Source: a virus
IMG/VR virus record: IMGVR_UViG_3300008108_000016
Span: 93,808-157,807 of that record
Length of the DNA stretch: 64,000 bases
Strand: one strand, 5' to 3'
This document shows, one piece after another, positions 2,202 through 62,092 of the stretch (position 1 is its first letter; each line of letters starts with the position of its first letter). Under the pieces are notes generated by a model. That model searched no databases, was not told the DNA's origin, and worked only from the letters and a program-made list of their open reading frames with translations. A program made the position numbers and the translations under genes.

Positions 2202-3008
2202 TCAAAAATAACCAAATTGATCAAACATCCATTTATATCTATTTTTTACCCAGTTGGATGCCTCAATACCTAATACTTCATTGTAATCTTTTTTAATTGG
2301 TTCAATCTTTTGTTTTATTGTATGATCACCATATATACCATATACACTATCATCTTCTGTTGTTATTTGTTCAACATGATCAAAATCGTGACCGTCATAA
2401 TAAGGTAAACCCAAATAATTATATATTCTATCCATTTCAGTTTTTGGACTTGAGGTAAAGTCCTCAAATCTAACAAACAACATTTTATTGTTTAAACCTT
2501 CTTTAAAAATTTGATATAACCTTTCTAAAGCTAACCCAACAGGTTGACCTTGAGACCAAATATCAATTCTTTTTTCCGTTGTTGTGCCAGCCATTTGAGA
2601 ATGGTTTACAATTCCGGCATCCAAATGTTGATTTTTTCTGAAGTTTTTTTCCATTGATGCAAAAATTGCTCTTGGATCTCTAACCATACAAATTATTTTT
2701 GGATTAGGATAAAATGAATTTAAGAAACCGTAATGAACTCCCCATCCTCTACTCTTATCTAAAACATATGGTTTGTCTGTAATCCCGTTATAAAAACCCT
2801 CAAGACCGTTACGACAAAAAGATAAAAAACCATCTTTCATTAAGTTTTGATCTTGGGCTTTAAATTCGGGTGAGTTAGAATAATTTGCTCTTGCGGCATA
2901 AACTAACTCTAATACACCTGAAGTTGGTGTAACATAAAAATCAGGATTTTGTCCCATTACATTTTGTAGTAATGTTGACCCTGCTCTTGGTAAAGAATGG
3001 ACACTCAT
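2202..3008 (-). CDS. Sulfotransferase family protein (copy 1)
   Basis: 268 residues. The N-terminal motif LPRAGSTLLQNVM matches the 5'-phosphosulfate loop of PAPS-dependent sulfotransferases, and CMVRDPRAIFASMEKNFRKN matches the 3'-phosphate binding region. It is a clear paralogue of the protein at 5502, sharing TPTSG, FKAQD, YVLDKSR and GDHKI-type blocks. Unlike that copy it lacks the leading beta-strand before the loop (MSVHSLPRAG against MVKNIFFNASLPRAG). Its first 68 bases overlap, out of frame, the end of the glycosyltransferase upstream, which looks like a recombination scar. Probable role: sulfation of a sugar or protein made by the neighbouring transferases. The substrate cannot be read from sequence. 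Confidence 0.85.
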   Translation of the reverse strand: MSVHSLPRAGSTLLQNVMGQNPDFYVTPTSGVLELVYAARANYSNSPEFKAQDQNLMKDGFLSFCRNGLEGFYNGITDKPYVLDKSRGWGVHYGFLNSFYPNPKIICMVRDPRAIFASMEKNFRKNQHLDAGIVNHSQMAGTTTEKRIDIWSQGQPVGLALERLYQIFKEGLNNKMLFVRFEDFTSSPKTEMDRIYNYLGLPYYDGHDFDHVEQITTEDDSVYGIYGDHTIKQKIEPIKKDYNEVLGIEASNWVKNRYKWMFDQFGYF

Positions 3009-42672: not shown

Positions 42673-44583
42673 TTATCTCAATTCTCTTAAATCAAATGTA
42701 CGTACGCCATCAACGGTAATTCGTCCGTAGAAGCGATTATTTACCATCTTCTTCGCGTATCGGGTCATAATACCTTTGATTGGCGTGAAGTTGAATGGGT
42801 TGTACATTGTAGGTGTTAATTGTAGAGGTACATACGGTGCGTAGATGTAACCTGTGTCAAGTAACGATGTTCCTTTGTGACCCAACAAAATTTGGTTTGG
42901 TGGGAAGTAAGGATCACGATACACTTGGTAACGTCCTGCAAGAGTACCAACTCTTTCAATACCCATGTTGTACTGGTCTTGTTCAGGAGATGCGTTAGAT
43001 ACGTGGAAGTATTCTAAATCATCAAAGATTGCTGAAACTTCAGATGATACAACGATCCAGTTAGCTCCACCACGAAGAGTTGACTTGTGGATTTGTGCTG
43101 ACAATTGGTTGATCGCAGTGATCAATGTTTGGTTCCAGTCCTTCTGAGTGTAAGAAGTTGTTTGTGCAATTCTTCTCCATCCGTTGTAGTCCCAACGTAA
43201 ATTCCAAGCCGCTCCTTTTCTCAAGTCACGTAGGATTTCACGGTCAATCTCTGCTGCTACCTGCTCTGACAACAACGCTGTCAATTCAGCCTCAGCATCA
43301 ATGTTATGGAATGCCGCAACGTCCTGAGCCATTTCAGGTGACCACTGTGCTCTTAGTTTTCTTTCAGTTACAGAAACTGTTACAGACTCAAGGTCAAAAG
43401 AAACTTCACCAATTTGGTCTTCAAACTCAAGGTTTGCATAACGTCTCCAAACAGCTGTGAAAGAATCACCAGAAGTTAAAGTATCTGTCAATGTTGTACC
43501 TGTGTAACCATCCAATGATGTGGAATCACAATCAGCACATACAGGACAAGAAAGATCTACTTCAAGGAAGATACATCCATCAGCATCACAGATATCATAG
43601 TAAGAACCACCATTACCTGTTGATGAAAGATCGCCACTTGGTAGGTTACCAGGCCATGAAGTTTGTTTAGTAGAACCATATTTAACGATTCCTTTTCCGT
43701 ATTGCTGAGTAACAACTCTAAACAATAGAGAGTTTGGCCCGTCAGTTCCATAAACAACATTACAAGGAGTTGTTCCTGTTAATGCTGGATTAGCCAAAGG
43801 TGCGAAAATTCTCAAATCAGAAAGGAAAGTTTCTGAATCAACTTCCATACCATCAGGCCCAATTAATTTACCGTATCCTGCTTGTGATGTCCAACCACAA
43901 AGCTTAACAATAATTTTTCTAACATTATCACCCGATGCGTATTCGTATGGTAAAAGATCACCACCTTGCCATGCAACAACTGTAGTGTTGCTAGTAACCG
44001 CAGTCCACTTACCTTTTGAGTAGTCAAACAATCCTGGAGGATCTAATTGACCTTCAGATCCTTCATAGAATAAATCATAAAGATTCTTCTTGAATGGTTG
44101 GTTATTTGGTGCAGTACTTCCAGGATAACCTTGGCTAGGGAAGTTATTACCACTATTTACCGCCTCAGGAGACCCAATAGGTGAATAATGATATGCGTTT
44201 CCTTCATATCCATTTGCTGCCGTTTGCTCCTGAGATGTAGGTGCGTATCCCTGAATACGAGGTACAAAGTAGAACAATTTACCGATAGGTAAGTTCATAG
44301 CCTGTACTGATACGATGTCGTTAGCCAACAATTTAGAGAAAACTCTTCTTACGATTGGGAAAACAACAGTTTCAAACGCTCCGTTAGAAGTTTCTGAAGT
44401 TGCTTCGTTAATCAAGAAAGAAGCTTGGTTTTCATATAACTGTGCTACGTTCTCTTTTAGATGTCCTTTAAGTCCATCAAGGAACCCTAATTTGTCCCAC
44501 TTGTTAATTGTATCTTCTTTGATAACTTTAAGGTGCTTAAGACCGATGTTACCAACAAGACCTGATTCTAATAATGCTCCCAT
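42673..44583 (-). CDS. Major capsid protein, T4 gp23-like
   Basis: 636 residues. Core signature LRAQWSPEMAQDVAAFHNID, then AEAELTALLSEQVAAEIDRE, as in gp23. SFLINE60 then ATSETSNGAFETVVFPIVRR aligns with the gp23 maturation site (T4 cleavage after Glu65), so the first 60 residues are probably removed by the prohead protease. The protein is about 115 residues longer than T4 gp23. The extra length seems to lie between about 180 and 370, including a Cys-rich stretch (FLEVDLSCPVCADCDSTSLD), perhaps a surface insertion. Forms the capsid hexamers. Confidence 0.95.
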   Translation of the reverse strand: MGALLESGLVGNIGLKHLKVIKEDTINKWDKLGFLDGLKGHLKENVAQLYENQASFLINEATSETSNGAFETVVFPIVRRVFSKLLANDIVSVQAMNLPIGKLFYFVPRIQGYAPTSQEQTAANGYEGNAYHYSPIGSPEAVNSGNNFPSQGYPGSTAPNNQPFKKNLYDLFYEGSEGQLDPPGLFDYSKGKWTAVTSNTTVVAWQGGDLLPYEYASGDNVRKIIVKLCGWTSQAGYGKLIGPDGMEVDSETFLSDLRIFAPLANPALTGTTPCNVVYGTDGPNSLLFRVVTQQYGKGIVKYGSTKQTSWPGNLPSGDLSSTGNGGSYYDICDADGCIFLEVDLSCPVCADCDSTSLDGYTGTTLTDTLTSGDSFTAVWRRYANLEFEDQIGEVSFDLESVTVSVTERKLRAQWSPEMAQDVAAFHNIDAEAELTALLSEQVAAEIDREILRDLRKGAAWNLRWDYNGWRRIAQTTSYTQKDWNQTLITAINQLSAQIHKSTLRGGANWIVVSSEVSAIFDDLEYFHVSNASPEQDQYNMGIERVGTLAGRYQVYRDPYFPPNQILLGHKGTSLLDTGYIYAPYVPLQLTPTMYNPFNFTPIKGIMTRYAKKMVNNRFYGRITVDGVRTFDLRELR

Positions 44584-46991: not shown

Positions 46992-47723
46992 TTATTTATC
47001 CAAATAATCGGATAAACGTTTCATTAAGTCAAGGGATTTGTTTCCTGAAGATCCAATATTTCTTTCTATCGCCATTTTTTTATCTTCTTCAAGATTTTCT
47101 TCAAATTGCATTCTATCGTCTTTATTTAAGAAAAGATACGCCCCAGGTGTTGATGGAGAAGAAACCAAATCAAAACAAATTAATTCAAAATCATCTTGTA
47201 CTTCATTTTGTTCACCAACTTTTTTAAGAGATCCAACCCCACGAGATGATATACCAAGAGTAACACCTTGTCTTAAATAGTTTGCCGCAAGATCTCCTTT
47301 GGTGGAACATATTCCCCTTTCATGAAACCCAGGACTTGTTAACAATTTTAACTTACCTAATAATACCGGGCCGTCCCACCATATCTCGGTAATTATATGG
47401 GATACTCTATCAAGATCAATAAGTGAGGATTCAGGGTGATTAAGTTCTGAAAGAGAAGTTCCCTTATCAATCATTTTTTTATAATTCTCAGCCTCCCTCT
47501 TTAATACTTTTTCAGGATATATTCTACCATTTCTATTTGGGGTATTGTATTTTTGTAATACCGCATAAAATTCAAATGGTTTTGAATGATCTAAAAAATT
47601 CTTTGATTCTTTTATAATCTCAGAATTGTATTTATCGTTTGGATTTATATACCCAGCATCGTACTCAATAAGAATTCCCCTCTTATTTGTTTCATTAGGG
47701 CCTAGTATTCTACTATCAGTCAT
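46992..47723 (-). CDS. Prohead core protease, gp21-like (S78/S80 fold)
   Basis: 243 residues. N-terminus GILIEYDAGYINPNDKYNSE, YAVLQKYNTPNRNGRIYPEK, then SELNHPESSLIDL with the catalytic His96 and GVTLGISSRGVGSLKK with the catalytic Ser (159 or 160), as in T4 gp21 and related assemblin-type proteases. C-terminus acidic (FEENLEEDKKM). It matures the capsid and core proteins, cleaving after Glu. Predicted targets here include the gp23-like Glu60 and the small tags described in the findings. Confidence 0.92.
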   Translation of the reverse strand: MTDSRILGPNETNKRGILIEYDAGYINPNDKYNSEIIKESKNFLDHSKPFEFYAVLQKYNTPNRNGRIYPEKVLKREAENYKKMIDKGTSLSELNHPESSLIDLDRVSHIITEIWWDGPVLLGKLKLLTSPGFHERGICSTKGDLAANYLRQGVTLGISSRGVGSLKKVGEQNEVQDDFELICFDLVSSPSTPGAYLFLNKDDRMQFEENLEEDKKMAIERNIGSSGNKSLDLMKRLSDYLDK

Positions 47724-47747: not shown

Positions 47748-48215
47748 TCAAACTTTTTCTATTTTTACTTTTTGTTGTCTTACATTTCCATTTTTAGTCA
47801 AATAAAATTTAAAATATTGATTCTTTGTTAATACATCATCATATACTCCTTTTATTATTTCTTTTAATTTTCTTTTTAATTTTATATCTTTGAAATCAAT
47901 TTCTTTTATTAAATAAAGGTTAATTTCTAAGTTTAAAAATGATTTCTTTTTTAGTTGTAGGCCACTTGTTCTTAAATCCATGTCAACAATAAATTTTTCA
48001 TCAAATAATGTTTTATCAATGTGATCATAAATTGAATGCTTAATGGATCTTGACATATTTTGAGTTATTCTGATCCAAGATTCATAATCATCTTTTGGTT
48101 CAACCCAAGTTTGTAAATTAAGATAGAGTGATTTAAAGTCTTTTGAGTCCACCGTTCCATAGGTGATTTTGGAAGTTCTAAAGCCATTTAATTTGGCTGT
48201 TTTTCCTTTTTTCAT
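47748..48215 (-). CDS. Hypothetical protein of the head block
   Basis: 155 residues, basic (KKGKTAKLNGFRTSKITYGT, NLQTWVEPKDDYESWIRITQ), with a helix LKRKLKEIIKGVYDDVLTKN and C-terminal FKFYLTKNGNVRQQKVKIEK. It sits between portal/core and protease genes, a slot taken in T4 by gp67/gp68. No sequence similarity I can name. Confidence 0.6.
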   Translation of the reverse strand: MKKGKTAKLNGFRTSKITYGTVDSKDFKSLYLNLQTWVEPKDDYESWIRITQNMSRSIKHSIYDHIDKTLFDEKFIVDMDLRTSGLQLKKKSFLNLEINLYLIKEIDFKDIKLKRKLKEIIKGVYDDVLTKNQYFKFYLTKNGNVRQQKVKIEKV

Positions 48216-48257
48216 AAAATATTTTCATATATTCGGTTTATTTTTAAAAAAAATAGA

Positions 48258-48265
48258 TAAATTTG
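48258..48265 (+). promoter_or_regulatory. Host-type -7 element TAAATTTG before rpsU-like gene
   Basis: TAAATTTG fits the Bacteroidetes -7 consensus TAnnTTTG, 51 bases before the bS21 ATG at 48316. The -33 element is only weakly met (TTCG at 48232-48235), so the promoter is provisional. Confidence 0.4.
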
Positions 48266-48315
48266 TAATATATATCAAATATAATAAACTAACTAATTAA
48301 AATAAAAAAACATAA

Positions 48316-48504
48316 ATGCTTATTGTTAAAATAAAGAAGACAGGAGACATTGAGAGAGCTCTTAAAGAACTGAAGAGTAAAGTAATTAAAACAAGACAAA
48401 ATTCCTTCCTCAACGAGAGAAAGGAATTTAAGAAAAAATCAGTTTTAAACAGAGAAAATAAGAATAGAGCTATATATCGCCAAAAGATGAAATTAAACGA
48501 TTAA
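48316..48504 (+). CDS. rpsU: Ribosomal protein bS21 (phage-encoded)
   Basis: 62 residues. MLIVKIKKTGDIERALKELK, then SKVIKTRQNSFLNERKEFKK and SVLNRENKNRAIYRQKMKLN. This matches the length and pattern of bS21: an N-terminal beta strand, the D-I-E-R-A-L-K helix, and a basic 'RERREFKKPSVxRRxKxxxA' tail. bS21 contacts the 3' end of 16S rRNA and, in Bacteroidetes, helps hide the anti-Shine-Dalgarno sequence. This is the only plus-strand gene inside the head block, so it seems independently regulated. It may alter the host ribosome in favour of phage mRNA (inference). Confidence 0.85.
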   Translation: MLIVKIKKTGDIERALKELKSKVIKTRQNSFLNERKEFKKKSVLNRENKNRAIYRQKMKLND

Positions 48505-49217
48505 ATATTTTCGTTTAATTTTTGTAATTTGAAATAAGATTCTTTATTGAAACTCTCTTCTTTAACTTTACTTATTGTTTCATTTATTTTTTGGATTGTT
48601 TCATTATCCATTTCATTTTCCTGCAATTTTTCAAGTTTACCCAAGATAGTACCCTTAAGAGTATAGAATGATTCAGTTAGTTGAGATTCATCAGATAAAA
48701 TAATTTTCTTTATTTCTGACTTATCAGATTCGGATAAATTTTCCAAATATGACTCAATTGTTTTATTAGCAATTTCAACCATAGTACTTATTGGAACCTT
48801 AACAATTTCACCATTATTAACAGGAGACTTCATTATATTTTCCAAAATAGTATTCTTACTTTTTATTTTATTTTCAAGGTTCAAAACGCTGTTGGAGAAA
48901 AGATCATCAATTTCATTATATTGATTATCACACTTTACGTGCCCAACCCACATTTCCAATTCTTTAAGTTCCGATGGTTTAATTTTATTTATTGTGTTTT
49001 CATAAACAACAATACTCTGATTAATAAAATCATTTGCAATAGATTCATTTAATCCTTTGTTTGAATTAAGTTCATCGTATAAAAAATATAATTTACTTAT
49101 GTTTTTATTTTTTAAAATTAATTCATCAAAAATGAACATATCCCTTTTTAATTGATTTTCTTTGTATGATTCAATTAACACGGATTCTATTTGTGATTTT
49201 AATATACCAAATTTCAT
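48501..49217 (-). CDS. Prohead core-type helical protein
   Basis: 238 residues, almost all helical and charged (FIFDELILKNKNISKLYFLY, KLEKLQENEMDNETIQKINE). N-terminus MKFGILKSQIESVLIE then SYKENQ fits the proposed Glu-ended tag. It lies next to portal, where T4 has core genes 67 and 68. Its 3' end overlaps the bS21 gene by 4 bases in opposite orientation. No nuclease or enzyme motif. Confidence 0.65.
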   Translation of the reverse strand: MKFGILKSQIESVLIESYKENQLKRDMFIFDELILKNKNISKLYFLYDELNSNKGLNESIANDFINQSIVVYENTINKIKPSELKELEMWVGHVKCDNQYNEIDDLFSNSVLNLENKIKSKNTILENIMKSPVNNGEIVKVPISTMVEIANKTIESYLENLSESDKSEIKKIILSDESQLTESFYTLKGTILGKLEKLQENEMDNETIQKINETISKVKEESFNKESYFKLQKLNENI

Positions 49218-49238: not shown

Positions 49239-51062
49239 TTAGTCTCTTAACAATTTGCTCAATTCATCTTCAATTGACCCCAAAGAATTTTTTCCCTTAC
49301 TAAGATCAATATAAGAATCTCCTGAGATATCATCAGTTTCTAATAAGATTTTTAAATTGTCTTTTTTATTTCCTTCAGGTAATCCTTCAGGCCCTCCTGG
49401 TGGTGGGGATTCTTCTCCTCCTCCCATTGGTGGTGGAGCTCCCATATCACCTCCACCCATAGGTGGCATTCCTCCTTCAGGTGCCGCTCCTGCGGTTTGT
49501 GTGGATCCTGATTTAACTTTATATAGTTTATCCACAGTATCAAACATACCTGTATGTGTAATAACGGTTGGTGTATTGGCAAGTTCCGCAGCTACGGCTC
49601 TTTCTAATCTCATTTGTTGTACATCCAATTTAATATCTTCATCAGAAAATCCAAATATATGTTTCTTAGCCCAAGTTGCTGATGTTGGTGCAAGTGTGTT
49701 AGGTATTTCACTGACAAGATCTTTATATAGTAAAACTTTTTCTTTCCATACATCAACCATTAATAGGTCAGCTTGTTTTGATGGATTTGTTAAACCTAAA
49801 GTAAAGTTTTGTAATTCGTCCTCAAAACCTAACAAGAATAAATGAATGATTGCGATTTTATTCATTTCGGCAATCATACTTTTCTGAATTCTATTTATTG
49901 TTCTTGCAAAACGAATGTCCTGTAATGATAAGTTTTTCCCATCACCAACAACTTCCTCAAATCCAAGGTATGCCTTTGGGACTCTTAATGCGGTAACCAA
50001 TTTCTTTTGGATGTATTCAATATCGGCAATTTCCGAAAGATTTTGTGCCCCAGGTAAAGTTTCAATTGGCATTGTTTGTGCCGGATCTCTAACAGGGACA
50101 AAATAATCTTGATCCACCGCCATTTGGTTAAAACGTAAGTCAACATTACCTGTTTTTGAGTCAACAACTTGATCTCTTTTAAATTTATTCGCAACACGTT
50201 GTACATATGGTTCAACATCCTTATCGTCCATATTTCCAACAAATACTTTAAACACCCGTCTTTCGGGTGCTCTTGATGTACGATAGATTAACATTGCATC
50301 TTCAGATAACATTAATTGTTTCCATATCCTTCTTGCTTTTTCCAACATAGAAGTCCCGTATGGTAGTTTTCTATCATCACCTAATAATCTAAAATGTGCT
50401 ATTTCCCAAGAATTAAATTCCATATCTTTTGCTTTCCAATGGAACTTTAATCCTTTTGATTTTGGGTCCACTTCGGCATTTATTGATTTTGCCTGCATAC
50501 CTCTCTCTAATCTTTCAATCTCAATATTTGGTAATTGCATACAACCAACAATACCCTTTTCAGGATCAAGTTTTAAATAAACAAAATTATCACCGTATTT
50601 ACAAGTATTTCTTGTCCACATTGGTAAGTTTGTATTTATGTCCAATGTGTTGTTAAATAAATCCGCAAGAATACCTTTTATCCTTTTTGATTCGGAGTAT
50701 ATTTGTAGGATATATCCATCTTGATTTGCGGTGGTTGATTCTTCGGCATATATATCTAATGCTGTTGATATTTCAGGAGTGAACTCCATTGATTCATAAT
50801 CATAAAACGAAGCTAATCTTGTTGGTTCATAATAAACCGCTTGAGTATATAAATTGTTTTCAATCTTTGCCCATTGACCTGACAAATAAAGAGTTTGTTG
50901 TGCTTGTAGTTTTTCTACCTCATACTCTTTTTTATCTGTGGTTTTTAATAATTCTTTTTTGTCTAACTTATATGTTGGTAAATCTTGATTCAATAATGAA
51001 TTTGGCCCAAACGCTTGGGACAGTCTTTGCCATATTGTTAAGTTATTTTTATTTTCTTCCAT
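49239..51062 (-). CDS. Portal protein, T4 gp20-like
   Basis: 607 residues. NDLP-type start (NLTIWQRLSQAFGPNSLLNQ), then YDYESMEFTPEISTALDIYA, TRNTCKYGDNFVYLKLDPEK, AHFRLLGDDRKLPYGTSMLE and LRVPKAYLGFEEVVGDGKNL (each typical of gp20-type portals). The last 90 residues are Pro/Gly/Met-rich (GGMPPMGGGDMGAPPPMGGG), unlike T4, and probably disordered. It forms the dodecameric ring at the packaging vertex. Order with terminase and protease is T4-like. Confidence 0.95.
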   Translation of the reverse strand: MEENKNNLTIWQRLSQAFGPNSLLNQDLPTYKLDKKELLKTTDKKEYEVEKLQAQQTLYLSGQWAKIENNLYTQAVYYEPTRLASFYDYESMEFTPEISTALDIYAEESTTANQDGYILQIYSESKRIKGILADLFNNTLDINTNLPMWTRNTCKYGDNFVYLKLDPEKGIVGCMQLPNIEIERLERGMQAKSINAEVDPKSKGLKFHWKAKDMEFNSWEIAHFRLLGDDRKLPYGTSMLEKARRIWKQLMLSEDAMLIYRTSRAPERRVFKVFVGNMDDKDVEPYVQRVANKFKRDQVVDSKTGNVDLRFNQMAVDQDYFVPVRDPAQTMPIETLPGAQNLSEIADIEYIQKKLVTALRVPKAYLGFEEVVGDGKNLSLQDIRFARTINRIQKSMIAEMNKIAIIHLFLLGFEDELQNFTLGLTNPSKQADLLMVDVWKEKVLLYKDLVSEIPNTLAPTSATWAKKHIFGFSDEDIKLDVQQMRLERAVAAELANTPTVITHTGMFDTVDKLYKVKSGSTQTAGAAPEGGMPPMGGGDMGAPPPMGGGEESPPPGGPEGLPEGNKKDNLKILLETDDISGDSYIDLSKGKNSLGSIEDELSKLLRD

Positions 51063-51320: not shown

Positions 51321-53084
51321 TTATCTGATACCAAATAACCAACCATAGTTTTCATAATCTTTTCTACTCTGTGAGGAAGTATCTCTCGCTCTATCTTGAT
51401 TATAGTTTGGTATAACAGGATTAAAATCAATTACATTTTTAACCGATTCATTATTATTTACCGTCCAAGATTCTAACATTGCCTTTGTTTGTTCAGTAAC
51501 CTTTTCCAAACTTGAGAAGGATGATTCCCCAACATATAGTGCCATTGATATTGACATAATTAGGTCATCATGATGTCCTTTTTGGTGATCTGGTCTACCA
51601 TTTATATAGACAAACGTATTCATTTCATTATATAAACGAGAACTATAAATTCTAAAATCGTGTCTCATTCCTTCCTCAAACGCTGCAATAATTTGAACAC
51701 GTTTATTATTAAAGTTTATACCAGGAATTTTATCCATTGCCTTTGGATTATACTTCCAAGTATTATTTAAATCAACTCCATCAATATACATATTTTTATA
51801 CCCTAACTCTTGAAGTTTTCTTGATGTCGCAATTCCCATACCTCCTGTAATATCTATAACAATAAATGCAGAATACATATTACCCCATTTATATGCCACC
51901 TCTGCAAGAACATCAGGTGGAATTTTTCCAATATATTCCAATACTTGTTCTCGTGTATCAAAATCAATAATTTGTATTGTTGAGAAATCCTCACTATCCC
52001 CACGAGAAACGTCAACCCCCATGATATATTTATGCCCAACAACTGGTTCTTTGAAAATCCATAATGAGTTTCCCATCATTTTATTTGATGGTTCTTTAAC
52101 CATATTTTCACGGATTTTTTGCATTAACTTAGAATCAAAGACATTATCACCAGATCCAAGGAAATTACATTCCAACTCCTGAGATACTTTTCTCTTATCG
52201 TACTTAAGTTTTTTAACCATACTCTCAAACCAAGCAGAACAAGGTTTATAACCTTTGTCCATTATGTCTTTAAGTTCCACATAATCCCTTGATTCAAATG
52301 GTTTATCTAACCAACTTATTATTTTTTCTTCACCATATTCTTCTTTATTTAGAAGATAGTGAATAATGTCATCTGTTTGGACTAAATATAAATCTTTGGT
52401 ATATCTAGGATCTCTGAACCAATACATTTCAGTGATTTTGAAATCGTTCATTCCACTACTTGCTTGATCATATATTTCATAATATATTGGATCATATCCA
52501 TTAGGTGTTGACACCACGATTACTTTACCTCCTGTAGAAAGGGATGCCATACAAGCTGCCCAAAAGTCACTATCCGCCTCAATAAATGCCGCCTCATCAA
52601 ATATTAATATTGTTGGGGTAAACCCACGAAGGGCATCTTTTGATGTTGCAACCGCCTTAACTTCACATCCATTATTTAACTTATAATGTTTTTGTGAATT
52701 TTTTTCCGCAGCAAAATCAATACCAACCCATTTAGGCCATTGACCCACAAAAGCCCTAATTTTGTTTGCCATCTCTAAAGACGTATCCAATTTGTTTGCA
52801 ATAATTAGGATTTTTTCAGGTTTTATTTTTTTTGCAAATGCCAATTTTTTTGATACCCAAGCTGCGGTTACGGTTGATACACCCGCCTGACGATATTTTA
52901 ATGCAATATTTTCATTGTATTCCTCATAATCATTTAATAATGTTATTTGATCAGGAAATAATTGTAGTGGGACGTATTGTGAAACCGTATTATCGTAAGT
53001 TTGTAAATATGTTTTTAATGCGTATGGGGTATCTTTCATACATTTCACATACTCTAACATTAGTTGTTCTTTACTCAAACTCAT
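51321..53084 (-). CDS. Large terminase subunit, T4 gp17-like
   Basis: 587 residues. ATPase domain: adenine-binding LFPDQITLLNDYEEY, Walker A-like ALKYRQAGVSTVTAAW near residue 63, TLAI-type RGFTPTILIFDEAAFIEADS (Walker B with catalytic Glu). Nuclease domain: MGVDVSRGDSEDFSTIQIID, FIVIDITGGMGIATSR and HHDDLIMSISMAL (three acidic residues). The usual P-loop Lys is missing from the GVST segment; Lys63 just upstream may replace it. It powers DNA packaging and cuts concatemers. Confidence 0.96.
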   Translation of the reverse strand: MSLSKEQLMLEYVKCMKDTPYALKTYLQTYDNTVSQYVPLQLFPDQITLLNDYEEYNENIALKYRQAGVSTVTAAWVSKKLAFAKKIKPEKILIIANKLDTSLEMANKIRAFVGQWPKWVGIDFAAEKNSQKHYKLNNGCEVKAVATSKDALRGFTPTILIFDEAAFIEADSDFWAACMASLSTGGKVIVVSTPNGYDPIYYEIYDQASSGMNDFKITEMYWFRDPRYTKDLYLVQTDDIIHYLLNKEEYGEEKIISWLDKPFESRDYVELKDIMDKGYKPCSAWFESMVKKLKYDKRKVSQELECNFLGSGDNVFDSKLMQKIRENMVKEPSNKMMGNSLWIFKEPVVGHKYIMGVDVSRGDSEDFSTIQIIDFDTREQVLEYIGKIPPDVLAEVAYKWGNMYSAFIVIDITGGMGIATSRKLQELGYKNMYIDGVDLNNTWKYNPKAMDKIPGINFNNKRVQIIAAFEEGMRHDFRIYSSRLYNEMNTFVYINGRPDHQKGHHDDLIMSISMALYVGESSFSSLEKVTEQTKAMLESWTVNNNESVKNVIDFNPVIPNYNQDRARDTSSQSRKDYENYGWLFGIR

Positions 53085-59428: not shown

Positions 59429-59857
59429 TTATTTCAAACTATTTATTCTATCTCTTAACTCAATACATCTTTCATAATCCTGATTTTTAATTGATTCATT
59501 CAATTCCTTATTTAAAGACTCCAATTCTTCTTTGTTTGATTCCAACTTTTTGATCTTGTCTCTTAATTCACAAGCCTTTTCAAATTCTTGATGATCAATC
59601 AAATTATCAAGTCTTAATTTAAGATCTGATATCTCATCACGTTTATTTGGTGGTTTTGAATTTCTGGTTATGATTGTATACGAATAAAGTCCGTCATCAC
59701 TCCTAAAACTTCTTCTTTCCCAATCACTATTCTCATCTTCTCCTGACTCAATTCTTTCCTTATTATTGGTGAAGGAATTATTAATACCCTCAAAAAGACC
59801 ATCAAAAGAATTAAATTCTCTAAACAAACGATTAAGATTGTAAAAATTTCTAAACAT
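59429..59857 (-). CDS. UVR-motif protein (McsA/ClpC-adaptor-like)
   Basis: 142 residues. The C-terminal half has two UVR motifs: LRLDNLIDHQEFEKACELRD then KIKKLE, and LNESIKNQDYERCIELRDRI then NSLK. UVR motifs mediate protein contacts in UvrB/C, McsA and the ClpC middle domain. N-terminus FRNFYNLNRLFREFNSFDGL is aromatic and may bind another protein. It is divergent from the ClpC-like gene and shares the intergenic operators, so an adaptor role with ClpC is an attractive inference. There are no zinc fingers as in full-length McsA. Confidence 0.78.
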   Translation of the reverse strand: MFRNFYNLNRLFREFNSFDGLFEGINNSFTNNKERIESGEDENSDWERRSFRSDDGLYSYTIITRNSKPPNKRDEISDLKLRLDNLIDHQEFEKACELRDKIKKLESNKEELESLNKELNESIKNQDYERCIELRDRINSLK

Positions 59858-59897
59858 ATTTTTTTTATTTAAGGTTTATTTTTAACCTCCTTTTTAC

Positions 59898-59929
59898 TAA
59901 AGATATGCTAAAATAAAATTAATGACAAA
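59898..59929 (-). promoter_or_regulatory. Bacteroidetes-type promoter for UVR gene
   Basis: Minus-strand TTTG (59929-59926, inside operator 1) and TATCTTTA (59905-59898) with 20-base spacing, close to TTTG-N19/20-TAnnTTTG. Just downstream the leader carries AAAGGAGGTT (about 59890-59882), a rare Shine-Dalgarno-like sequence. It lies 25 or more bases from the ATG and is partly in a small AGGTT/AACCT hairpin. Confidence 0.5.
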
Positions 59930-59935
59930 ATGTCA
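59923..59935. promoter_or_regulatory. Operator candidate 1: TGACA-N3-TGTCA
   Basis: TGACAAAATGTCA, a palindrome apart from its centre (15 bases with the flanking A/T). Its reverse complement is identical to operator 2 at 59954. It overlaps the -33 region of the UVR gene and lies next to the -7 element for the Clp gene. Confidence 0.7.
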
Positions 59936-59943
59936 TATTTTTG
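59936..59943 (+). promoter_or_regulatory. Host-type -7 element TATTTTTG for ClpC-like gene
   Basis: TATTTTTG fits TAnnTTTG and sits between the two operators, placing a start of transcription near 59950. No good -33 TTTG is seen at the expected place. Confidence 0.4.
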
Positions 59944-59953
59944 TTAATTTATA

Positions 59954-59966
59954 TGACATTTTGTCA
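59954..59966. promoter_or_regulatory. Operator candidate 2: TGACA-N3-TGTCA
   Basis: TGACATTTTGTCA, identical to operator 1 in reverse orientation. Centres are 31 bases apart, about three helical turns, so two dimers could bind on one face. It would block elongation or open-complex formation at the Clp promoter. Confidence 0.7.
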
Positions 59967-60018
59967 AAATATAGACTTTTATTTATTCATTGATTAGATT
60001 TTTAAAAAATTAGAAAAA

Positions 60019-62079
60019 ATGATAGAAAATATGGATAATGATGACAAAGGTAAAAAAGGTTCTGACAAGAATACTCCCGTTCTTGATAATTTTAGTCGCG
60101 ATTTAAATAAGCTTGCTGAAGAAGGTAAATTAGATCCTGTTGTTGGTAGAGAAAAAGAAATTATGAGGATCGCACAAATATTATCAAGAAGAAAGAAAAA
60201 CAATCCAATTATTGTTGGTGAACCAGGTTGTGGTAAAACAGCAATTGTTGAGGGTCTTGCAATGAAAATTTATGAGGGTGATTGTCCAAAAAATTTATCA
60301 GATAAAAGAATCGTTTCTTTGGATATGAACTCAATTGTTGCTGGAACAAAATATAGAGGTCAGTTTGAGGAAAGAATGAAAGTAATTATTGAGGAATTAC
60401 AGAACAATCCTAACATAATTGTTTTTATTGATGAGATTCACACAATTGTTGGTGCTGGTAGTTCTTCAGGATCATTAGATGCATCAAACATATTCAAACC
60501 AGCCCTTGCAAGGGGTGAGATCCAATGTGTGGGGGCAACAACTCTTGATGAGTATCGTAAGAACTTTGAAAAGGATGGAGCCTTGGAAAGAAGATTCCAA
60601 AAGATCATTGTTGATCCTTCAACAAAAGAAGAGACATTAACAATTCTAAAGAATTCAAAACCAAAATATGAATCCCATCACAAAGTTTTTTATACCGATG
60701 AGATTTTAAATTTATGTGTTGAGTTGGCAGACAGATATATAACAGATAGGGAATTCCCTGATAAAGCTTTTGATATATTAGATGAGGTTGGCGCCAGATC
60801 TCAAGTAGATTTAAAATTACCTGAAAACATTGAGAAATTAAAATATGAGTTATCTCTTATTAAGGTTGAAAAATTGGATGTTATTAAAAAACAAAAATAT
60901 GAGTTGGCGGCAGATTTAAGGGATAAAGAAAGGAAGATTCTAACAAAATTAGATGAAGAGAAAAAGAAGTTTGAGGATCAATTACAACAAAGTAAAAGAG
61001 AAATATCTGAAGAACTTGTTTATGAAGTTGTGTCAAATATGACAAAAATCCCTGTTAATAAAATTACGATAGATGAAACAAAGTCTTTGGTCAATTTGGA
61101 ACAAACATTAAATGATATTGTTATCGGACAAGAAGATGCGGTTAAAAAGATCTCAAAATCAATTAGGAGAAACCGTGTCGGCATTAAAGATCCAAATAGA
61201 CCGATTGGTTCATTTATATTTTTGGGATCAACTGGTGTAGGAAAAACGTTCTTAGCAAAAAAATTGGCAAAAGAAATATTCGGAAATGAAGAAAATTTGA
61301 TAAGAGTTGATATGTCTGAGTTTCAGGAGAAACACACAATATCAAGATTAATCGGATCCCCTCCAGGGTATGTTGGTCATGAAGAAGGTGGTCAATTAAC
61401 AGAACAAGTTAAGAACAAACCATATTCGGTTATTTTATTTGATGAGATTGAAAAGGCAAATAAGGACATATTTGCAACCCTCCTTCAAATGTTAGATGAT
61501 GGTCATATGACAGATGGTTTGGGAAGAAAAATTAATTTCAAAAATTGTTTGATTATCATGACATCAAATATTGGAGTTAAAAAACTACAGGATTTTGGTA
61601 ATGGAGTTGGTTTTAAATCAAACAACAATAGTGAGGCAATTAAAGAAGAATATAAAAGAGATATTCTTAAGAAAGAATTAAGTAAGTTTTTTGCTCCCGA
61701 ATTCTTAAATAGAATTGATGATGTGATCATATTTAATTCTCTTAAAAAAGAACATATTGATAAAATTGTTAAACTTGAAATTGATAAGTTAATTGGTAGA
61801 TTAAAATCAATGAAATATAACATCTCCTACGAGTCTTCGGTTATTGATTTAATATCTGAAGTAGGATTTGATGAACAATATGGTGCAAGACCAATTAAAA
61901 GAGCAATACAAGATAAAATTGAGGATCTTATTTCAGAAAAAATATTACTTGACGAAATTAAAGAGGGTCAAGAACATATGTTATATGTTAAGGTTGAGGG
62001 TGAAAATAAAATTATTGATATTGAAAATAGATCATTAGAACAACCGAAGAAAAAAGGGAGAAAGAAAAAGGAGGTTTAA
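60019..62079 (+). CDS. ClpC-like AAA+ unfoldase without N-domain
   Basis: 686 residues. It starts almost directly with AAA-1: [20 protein letters not shown], Walker A GEPGCGKT (67-74), [21 protein letters not shown] short middle domain carries a UVR-like segment ([20 protein letters not shown]). AAA-2 has GSTGVGKT near 405, [41 protein letters not shown]530-G531-F532 ([11 protein letters not shown]) is at the place of the ClpP-docking loop. The usual double Clp N-domain is missing. It probably feeds host ClpP with substrates picked by an adaptor such as the divergent UVR protein. Confidence 0.9.
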
Positions 62080-62092
62080 TAACCTCCTTTTT
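62066..62092. terminator. Bidirectional terminator
   Basis: AAAAGGAGGTT, TAAT loop, AACCTCCTTTT, overlapping the last codons of the ClpC-like gene and ending at the convergent peptidase stop. Confidence 0.88.

What the first reader, a model, noticed from the sequence alone, without database searches (positions are those of the whole stretch)
48316..48504. Phage-encoded ribosomal protein bS21 in a Bacteroidetes phage
A 62-residue bS21-like gene is placed alone on the opposite strand in the head block, with a host-type -7 element. In Bacteroidetes, bS21 helps bury the anti-Shine-Dalgarno end of 16S rRNA. A phage version could change start-site choice. Phage genes here rarely have Shine-Dalgarno sequences, with an exception in the UVR-gene leader (59882-59890).
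Basis: partly seen in the sequence, partly recalled or inferred. Interest (0 to 1): 0.8.

Follow-up and report, generated by a model that had tools for sequence, protein, structure and literature searches.

The report
Phage-encoded ribosomal protein bS21
A virus of Bacteroidota bacteria carries its own version of a small ribosomal protein, a kind of gene already described in related lake viruses; new here is that its copy lacks the Shine-Dalgarno signal that host copies often carry, and has a different promoter from the capsid genes around it.

Summary
The 62-aa ORF at 48316-48504 (+) is a real bS21: it aligns without gaps to Flavobacterium johnsoniae bS21 (PDB 7jil), carries Tyr54, and is under strong purifying selection. 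It stands alone on the plus strand inside a T4-like head block, as in 79 of 79 related viral contigs. This system is already published (Chen et al. 2022, PMC9723584), including opposite-strand placement, Tyr54 and Bacteroidetes hosts.

That it changes start-site choice is only partly supported. Tyr54, which helps bury the anti-Shine-Dalgarno, is invariant, and phage genes show no SD above chance. The claimed UVR-leader SD lies 27 nt from the start codon and is not conserved.

Three points go beyond the papers I read. (1) Host rpsU often has an extended SD (50 of 95 distinct leaders), used for autoregulation in F. johnsoniae; this phage clade has none (0 of 28). (2) Neighbouring head genes use a TATTTAT promoter-like motif; bS21 instead has a conserved GTTTA-N17-TAnnTTTG/TATATATCAA element. 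(3) It shares that region with a divergent 155-aa protein of unknown family. Most likely it replaces host bS21 while escaping the host feedback loop. New member of a known kind.

The parts
48316..48504 (+). phage bS21 gene (62 aa; Tyr54; phage-specific block residues 21-30 SKVIKTRQNS)
48236..48240 (+). GTTTA, -33-like element (GTTTATTT in 33/33 distinct relatives), 17 nt before the -7 element
48258..48265 (+). TAAATTTG, host-type -7 element (TAnnTTTG), present in 26/33 distinct relatives; 24 of these have GTTTA with a 17-nt spacer
48269..48278 (+). TATATATCAA element (often within palindrome TGATATATATCA), 31/33 relatives; upstream of only bS21 among 332 genes of three phages
48216..48315 (.). 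divergent intergenic region shared by bS21 and the 155-aa gene
48489..48522 (+). 12-bp hairpin across the bS21 stop codon followed by a short T run, candidate terminator; not evenly conserved
47748..48215 (-). CN155: 155-aa conserved protein of no known family, divergent partner of bS21
48501..49217 (-). CN238: 238-aa conserved protein, tail-to-tail with bS21 (4-nt overlap), with TATTTAT promoter-like motif
46992..47723 (-). prohead protease (S77), TATTTAT upstream
49239..51062 (-). T4-like portal protein
51321..53084 (-). terminase large subunit, TATTTAT upstream
42673..44583 (-). Gp23-like major capsid protein

Best explanation
It is a true bS21 paralogue of a T4-like phage that infects Bacteroidota. 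Shown by sequence: homology, Tyr54, purifying selection, conserved placement, absence of an SD in its leader, and a promoter region unlike that of the neighbouring head genes. Inferred: the protein takes the place of host bS21 on the 30S platform during infection and keeps the anti-SD buried, so phage and host SD-less mRNAs are both readable. Because its own gene has no SD, its synthesis should not depend on bS21-free ribosomes, unlike an SD-bearing host rpsU. Filling ribosomes with phage bS21 should then keep such a host rpsU gene switched off through its own feedback, making the replacement self-sustaining. The altered helix 1-2 face may bias mRNA or factor binding, which is untested.
For: bS21 membership. 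Tyr54 in all phage copies read. Host rpsU leaders with an SD match of 6 nt or more: 42/67 and 8/28 Flavobacteriales, together 50/95, against 0/28 in the phage clade (Fisher p=3e-8; Flavobacteriales alone p=0.004). Autoregulation by bS21-free ribosomes through the extended SD in F. johnsoniae (PMC9976891). TATTTAT upstream of scaffold-position gene 28/28, protease 28/28, CN238 30/30, terL 18/18, but bS21 1/32 and CN155 0/30. Conserved GTTTA-N17-TAnnTTTG. A different phage bS21 enters ribosomes in E. coli (PMC6375957).
Against: No expression or ribosome data for this phage. In related phages bS21 is transcribed together with the late genes (PMC9723584), so the different promoter does not prove different timing. 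Nearly half of the sampled hosts also lack an SD on rpsU, so the feedback escape would not matter there; the actual host is unknown. A 735-kb huge phage bS21 has an SD-like AAAGGAGG leader, so SD absence is not general to phage bS21.
Confidence: 0.5

Rival explanations
1. Phage bS21 re-targets initiation: chimeric ribosomes prefer phage late mRNAs over host mRNAs (view of Chen et al. and of the first reader).
For: A phage-only block SKVIKTRQNS at residues 21-30, in the N-terminal part that Chen et al. place where mRNA would bind, is almost invariant across the clade; location in the head block and late transcription in relatives (PMC9723584).
Against: No SD or other obvious leader signal separates phage genes: SD counts equal shuffles, and A enrichment at -3 and -11 to -13 resembles the known Bacteroidetes start context. 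Tyr54 is kept, so the anti-SD should stay buried.
Confidence: 0.22
2. Dosage only: the phage tops up a ribosomal protein that is limiting or turned over in slow-growing freshwater hosts, with no change in specificity.
For: Strong purifying selection, retained bS21 hallmarks, own conserved promoter.
Against: The phage clade is separated from host bS21 by a long branch (2.35 changes per column, support 100/99) and has a fixed divergent block, which mere top-up would not need.
Confidence: 0.13
3. Poison: phage bS21 cripples host translation at a chosen stage.
For: HTVC008M phage bS21 lowers E. coli ribosome activity to about 5% in vitro (PMC6375957).
Against: That was a cross-species mix; the phage needs translation for its capsid proteins, and bS21 is transcribed together with them in relatives (PMC9723584).
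Confidence: 0.07
4. It acts outside the ribosome or inside the virion, for example packaged in the head and injected with the DNA.
For: Sits among head genes; Chen et al. raised packaging as a possibility.
Against: Its promoter region differs from that of the head genes and the rRNA-tail contact residue is kept.
Confidence: 0.05

Closest known systems
bS21 of freshwater Bacteroidetes jumbo myophages, clades a-e (Chen et al. 2022, PMC9723584)
   Same: bS21 on the opposite strand between two hypothetical genes inside the TerL, portal, protease, capsid region; aromatic residue at 54; AT-rich; predicted Bacteroidetes hosts
   Different: The promoter split and the SD-less leader were not reported in the text I read.
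F. johnsoniae bS21 (rpsU; PDB 7jil; PMC9976891)
   Same: 62-64 aa, three helices, Tyr54, ungapped alignment at 42% identity
   Different: Phage protein has SKVIKTRQNS at 21-30 where the F. johnsoniae protein has RKFDKTGTVR, KKSV for KPSV, and its gene lacks the extended SD
bS21 of huge phages (LR745206, LR756501, LR756502, LR756504; identified as the Al-Shayeb et al. 2020 set from memory)
   Same: phage-encoded, Tyr54 present
   Different: Not in the same clade: they fall among host sequences and lack the phage-specific block; LR756501 has a strong SD-like leader
Pelagibacter phage HTVC008M bS21 (PMC6375957)
   Same: phage bS21 shown to enter ribosomes in E. coli
   Different: Proteobacterial type, acquired from another host lineage

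Membership tests
Ribosomal protein bS21 (PF01165) | Profile match over nearly the whole domain | tested here: met
   Window protein E=1.7e-4 over profile 2-54/55 but 21.6 bits, below cut-off 27; sister phage proteins over the cut-off; 23/23 members match
Ribosomal protein bS21 (PF01165) | Basic helical protein with bS21 fold | tested here: met
   Model with helices 12-26, 28-36, 41-61, pLDDT 80, pTM 0.39; all seven Foldseek hits are ribosome entries, E. coli first, but E-values are weak, 0.3 and up
Bacteroidota-type bS21 | Tyr54 that stacks on A1534 | tested here: met
   Tyr at position 54, invariant in the alignment
Bacteroidota-type bS21 | Sequesters the anti-SD on the 30S platform | not testable with these tools
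   Needs structure or biochemistry
SD-autoregulated rpsU | Extended SD upstream of the start codon | tested here: not met
   0/28 distinct phage leaders
Chen et al. bS21 phage group | bS21 on opposite strand in TerL/portal/protease/MCP block, flanked by two conserved hypothetical genes | tested here: met
   Window and 79/79 relatives
Chen et al. bS21 phage group | TerL similarity of at least about 70% to their genomes | not tested
   Their sequences are not in the collections searched; diverged IMG/VR relatives here show 66-85% TerL identity to the window
Chen et al. bS21 phage group | bS21 transcribed in the late stage | not testable with these tools
   No RNA data

The most novel reading that the evidence does not exclude
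The phage bS21 gene is built to break the host's bS21 feedback loop: it is SD-less and driven by a dedicated bidirectional promoter shared with a conserved 155-aa partner, so phage bS21 fills ribosomes, holds host rpsU off through the host's own SD-dependent autoregulation, and the partner helps exchange bS21 on the ribosome or controls the pair.
Probability: 0.2. Interest if true: 0.7.

Novelty: new member of a known kind. Interest (0 to 1): 0.38.

Why it matters
Phage bS21 is by far the commonest ribosomal protein found in phages (PMC9976891), yet what it does is unknown. Bacteroidota are a group where bS21 loss is known to change mRNA choice and to regulate bS21's own gene. The contrast found here, an SD on many host genes and none on the phage gene, turns a vague hijacking idea into a simple reporter test.

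Tried and rejected
Chance ORF: rejected by homology, synteny and dN/dS. SD in the UVR leader: rejected for spacing and lack of conservation. SD use by phage genes: no excess over shuffles in three phages. CN155 as an RpbA relative: only 2 of 25 members match Pfam RpbA, best E=0.049; PHROGs gave scattered weak hits; PDB fold search gave nothing below E=0.009; the viral library gave one uncharacterised myovirus protein (E=2e-8, TM about 0.7). CN155 in phages without bS21: none seen, 73 of 73 checkable loci have bS21 divergently next to it, but only close relatives were returned. EM motif search on AT-rich leaders found nothing useful; k-mer counting found TATTTAT. A first Fisher test used a miscount (51/95); corrected to 50/95.

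Full report
OBSERVATION. The ORF at 48316-48504 on the plus strand encodes MLIVKIKKTGDIERALKELKSKVIKTRQNSFLNERKEFKKKSVLNRENKNRAIYRQKMKLND. Pfam finds Ribosomal_S21 over almost the whole profile, E=1.7e-4, 21.6 bits, under the curated 27. The best solved relatives are bS21 chains 9i5v and 7jil (F. johnsoniae), aligned without gaps. Sister phage proteins exceed the Pfam cut-off, and 23 of 23 phage and host members of a joint alignment match the family. Fifteen distinct 62-aa coding sequences give a median dN/dS of 0.07. An AlphaFold model has three helices, and all seven Foldseek hits are ribosome entries, E. coli first, although E-values are weak for so short a protein. The gene is real.

SETTING. 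The window is positions 93808-157807 of a 157,807-base IMG/VR virus record. The head block runs on the minus strand: terminase, portal, a 238-aa protein (CN238), [bS21, plus strand], a 155-aa protein (CN155), prohead protease, a scaffold-position protein of 451 aa, and a Gp23-like capsid protein. A viral scan returned 80 related loci. In all 79 that could be checked, bS21 lies on the opposite strand, with CN155 and CN238 as neighbours. No tRNA and no Rfam family was found in the window.

WHAT IS ALREADY KNOWN. Chen et al. 2022 (PMC9723584) describe the same thing: bS21 on the reverse strand in the TerL, portal, protease and capsid region of freshwater Bacteroidetes myophages, an aromatic residue at position 54 in all, late expression, and the proposal that it replaces host bS21. 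McNutt et al. 2023 (PMC9976891) show that Bacteroidia bS21 helps bury the anti-SD, that F. johnsoniae rpsU has an extended SD and is autoregulated by ribosomes lacking bS21, and discuss phage bS21. Mizuno et al. 2019 (PMC6375957) showed that another phage bS21 enters E. coli ribosomes and lowers their activity. The finding is therefore a new member of a known kind.

PROTEIN COMPARED WITH HOSTS. In a joint alignment, Tyr54 is invariant. The phages share a block at residues 21-30 (SKVIKTRQNS) that differs from all hosts in the alignment; it covers the region where Chen et al. report phage-host divergence. A tree of 97 proteins puts the 31 phage variants in one clade (support 100/99) on a long branch, while four huge-phage bS21 proteins fall among hosts. 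With only 64 columns, finer relations are unresolved.

SHINE-DALGARNO TEST. I compared leaders with the anti-SD complement. Among 67 distinct host leaders nearest to the phage protein, 42 have runs of 6 or more matching bases, often AAGGAGGTGAT. In a second sample of 28 Flavobacteriales leaders, 8 do. Of the distinct phage leaders, 0 of 28 do; 50/95 against 0/28 gives Fisher p=3e-8. The sequences are related and the host samples are not random, so the p-value is only a guide, and the host of this phage is unknown. Across the phage genome, 5 of 139 genes have an SD match of 5 bases or more, against about 5.8 from shuffled leaders, and the pattern repeats in two related phages. Leaders are enriched in A at -3 and around -11 to -13, which I recognise from memory as the Bacteroidetes start context. 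So there is no sign that phage mRNAs rely on an opened anti-SD.

PROMOTER TEST. TATTTAT is strongly enriched upstream of phage genes (76 of 332 against 20 expected) and concentrated 12-28 nt before start codons. All distinct leaders of the scaffold-position gene (28/28), protease (28/28), CN238 (30/30) and terminase (18/18) have it; bS21 has it in 1 of 32 and CN155 in 0 of 30. The bS21/CN155 intergenic region instead carries GTTTATTT (33/33 distinct regions), TAnnTTTG (26/33; 24 of them with GTTTA exactly 17 nt upstream) and TATATATCAA (31/33; about 0.1 expected by shuffling). Among 332 genes of three phages, TATATATCAA lies upstream of bS21 only. The distinct regions come from related phages, so these counts are not independent events. 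I read this as a host-type promoter for bS21 with a shared control element; no transcript start has been mapped. It could explain why Chen et al. saw matched transcript levels of bS21 and one opposite-strand neighbour, if that neighbour is CN155, which I could not verify.

CN155. It is exactly 155 aa in all 27 variants collected, 82% mean column identity, with no credible family, no good solved fold match and one structural relative in an uncharacterised myovirus protein. In 73 of 73 loci where it could be checked, bS21 is its divergent neighbour, though the scan returns close relatives only.

MECHANISM. Shown: a bS21 gene under selection, with the anti-SD-burying Tyr54, an SD-less leader and a separate promoter region. 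Inferred: it replaces host bS21, keeps the anti-SD shut, and by avoiding SD-dependent control is made when ribosomes are already full, while an SD-bearing host rpsU stays off. The start-site-switch idea stays possible only through the phage-specific 21-30 block. Limits: no expression data, unknown host, and no sequence comparison with the Chen genomes themselves.

Noticed in passing
window 59429-62079: A UVR-domain gene (minus) and a ClpC/ClpA-like ATPase gene (plus) are divergent and share inverted repeats of the type TATGACATTTTGTCA in between; TGACAT/TGTCA-type repeats persist in homologues L210, L212 and L213. Looks like an operator for a McsA/ClpC-like pair.
   Followed up: partly
window, upstream of many genes, e.g. 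starts at 53084, 47723, 49217, 45976 (-) and 35937 (+): TATTTAT promoter-like motif, 12-28 nt before start codons, in 76 of 332 genes of three related phages (about 20 expected); likely the phage's own promoter class.
   Followed up: yes
L089, L091, L093, L094, L095, L098, L100: Several Flavobacteriales rpsU leaders lack an SD and share TTTGCCgTCCAATTTTGAC just before the ATG, perhaps another kind of rpsU control.
   Followed up: no
G001, G084, G091, G107 (Flavobacteriales genomes): Two or three bS21 matches per genome, so host paralogues exist.
   Followed up: no
L295 (LR756501, 735-kb huge phage), just upstream of position 3001: Its bS21 has an AAAGGAGGATAA leader directly before ATG, unlike the window clade.
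   Followed up: no
window 62066-62092: AAAAAGGAGGTTTAATAACCTCCTTTTT hairpin at the end of the ClpC-like gene, before the convergent peptidase gene, probably a terminator; it accounts for two of the nine AAGGAGG matches in the window.
   Followed up: no
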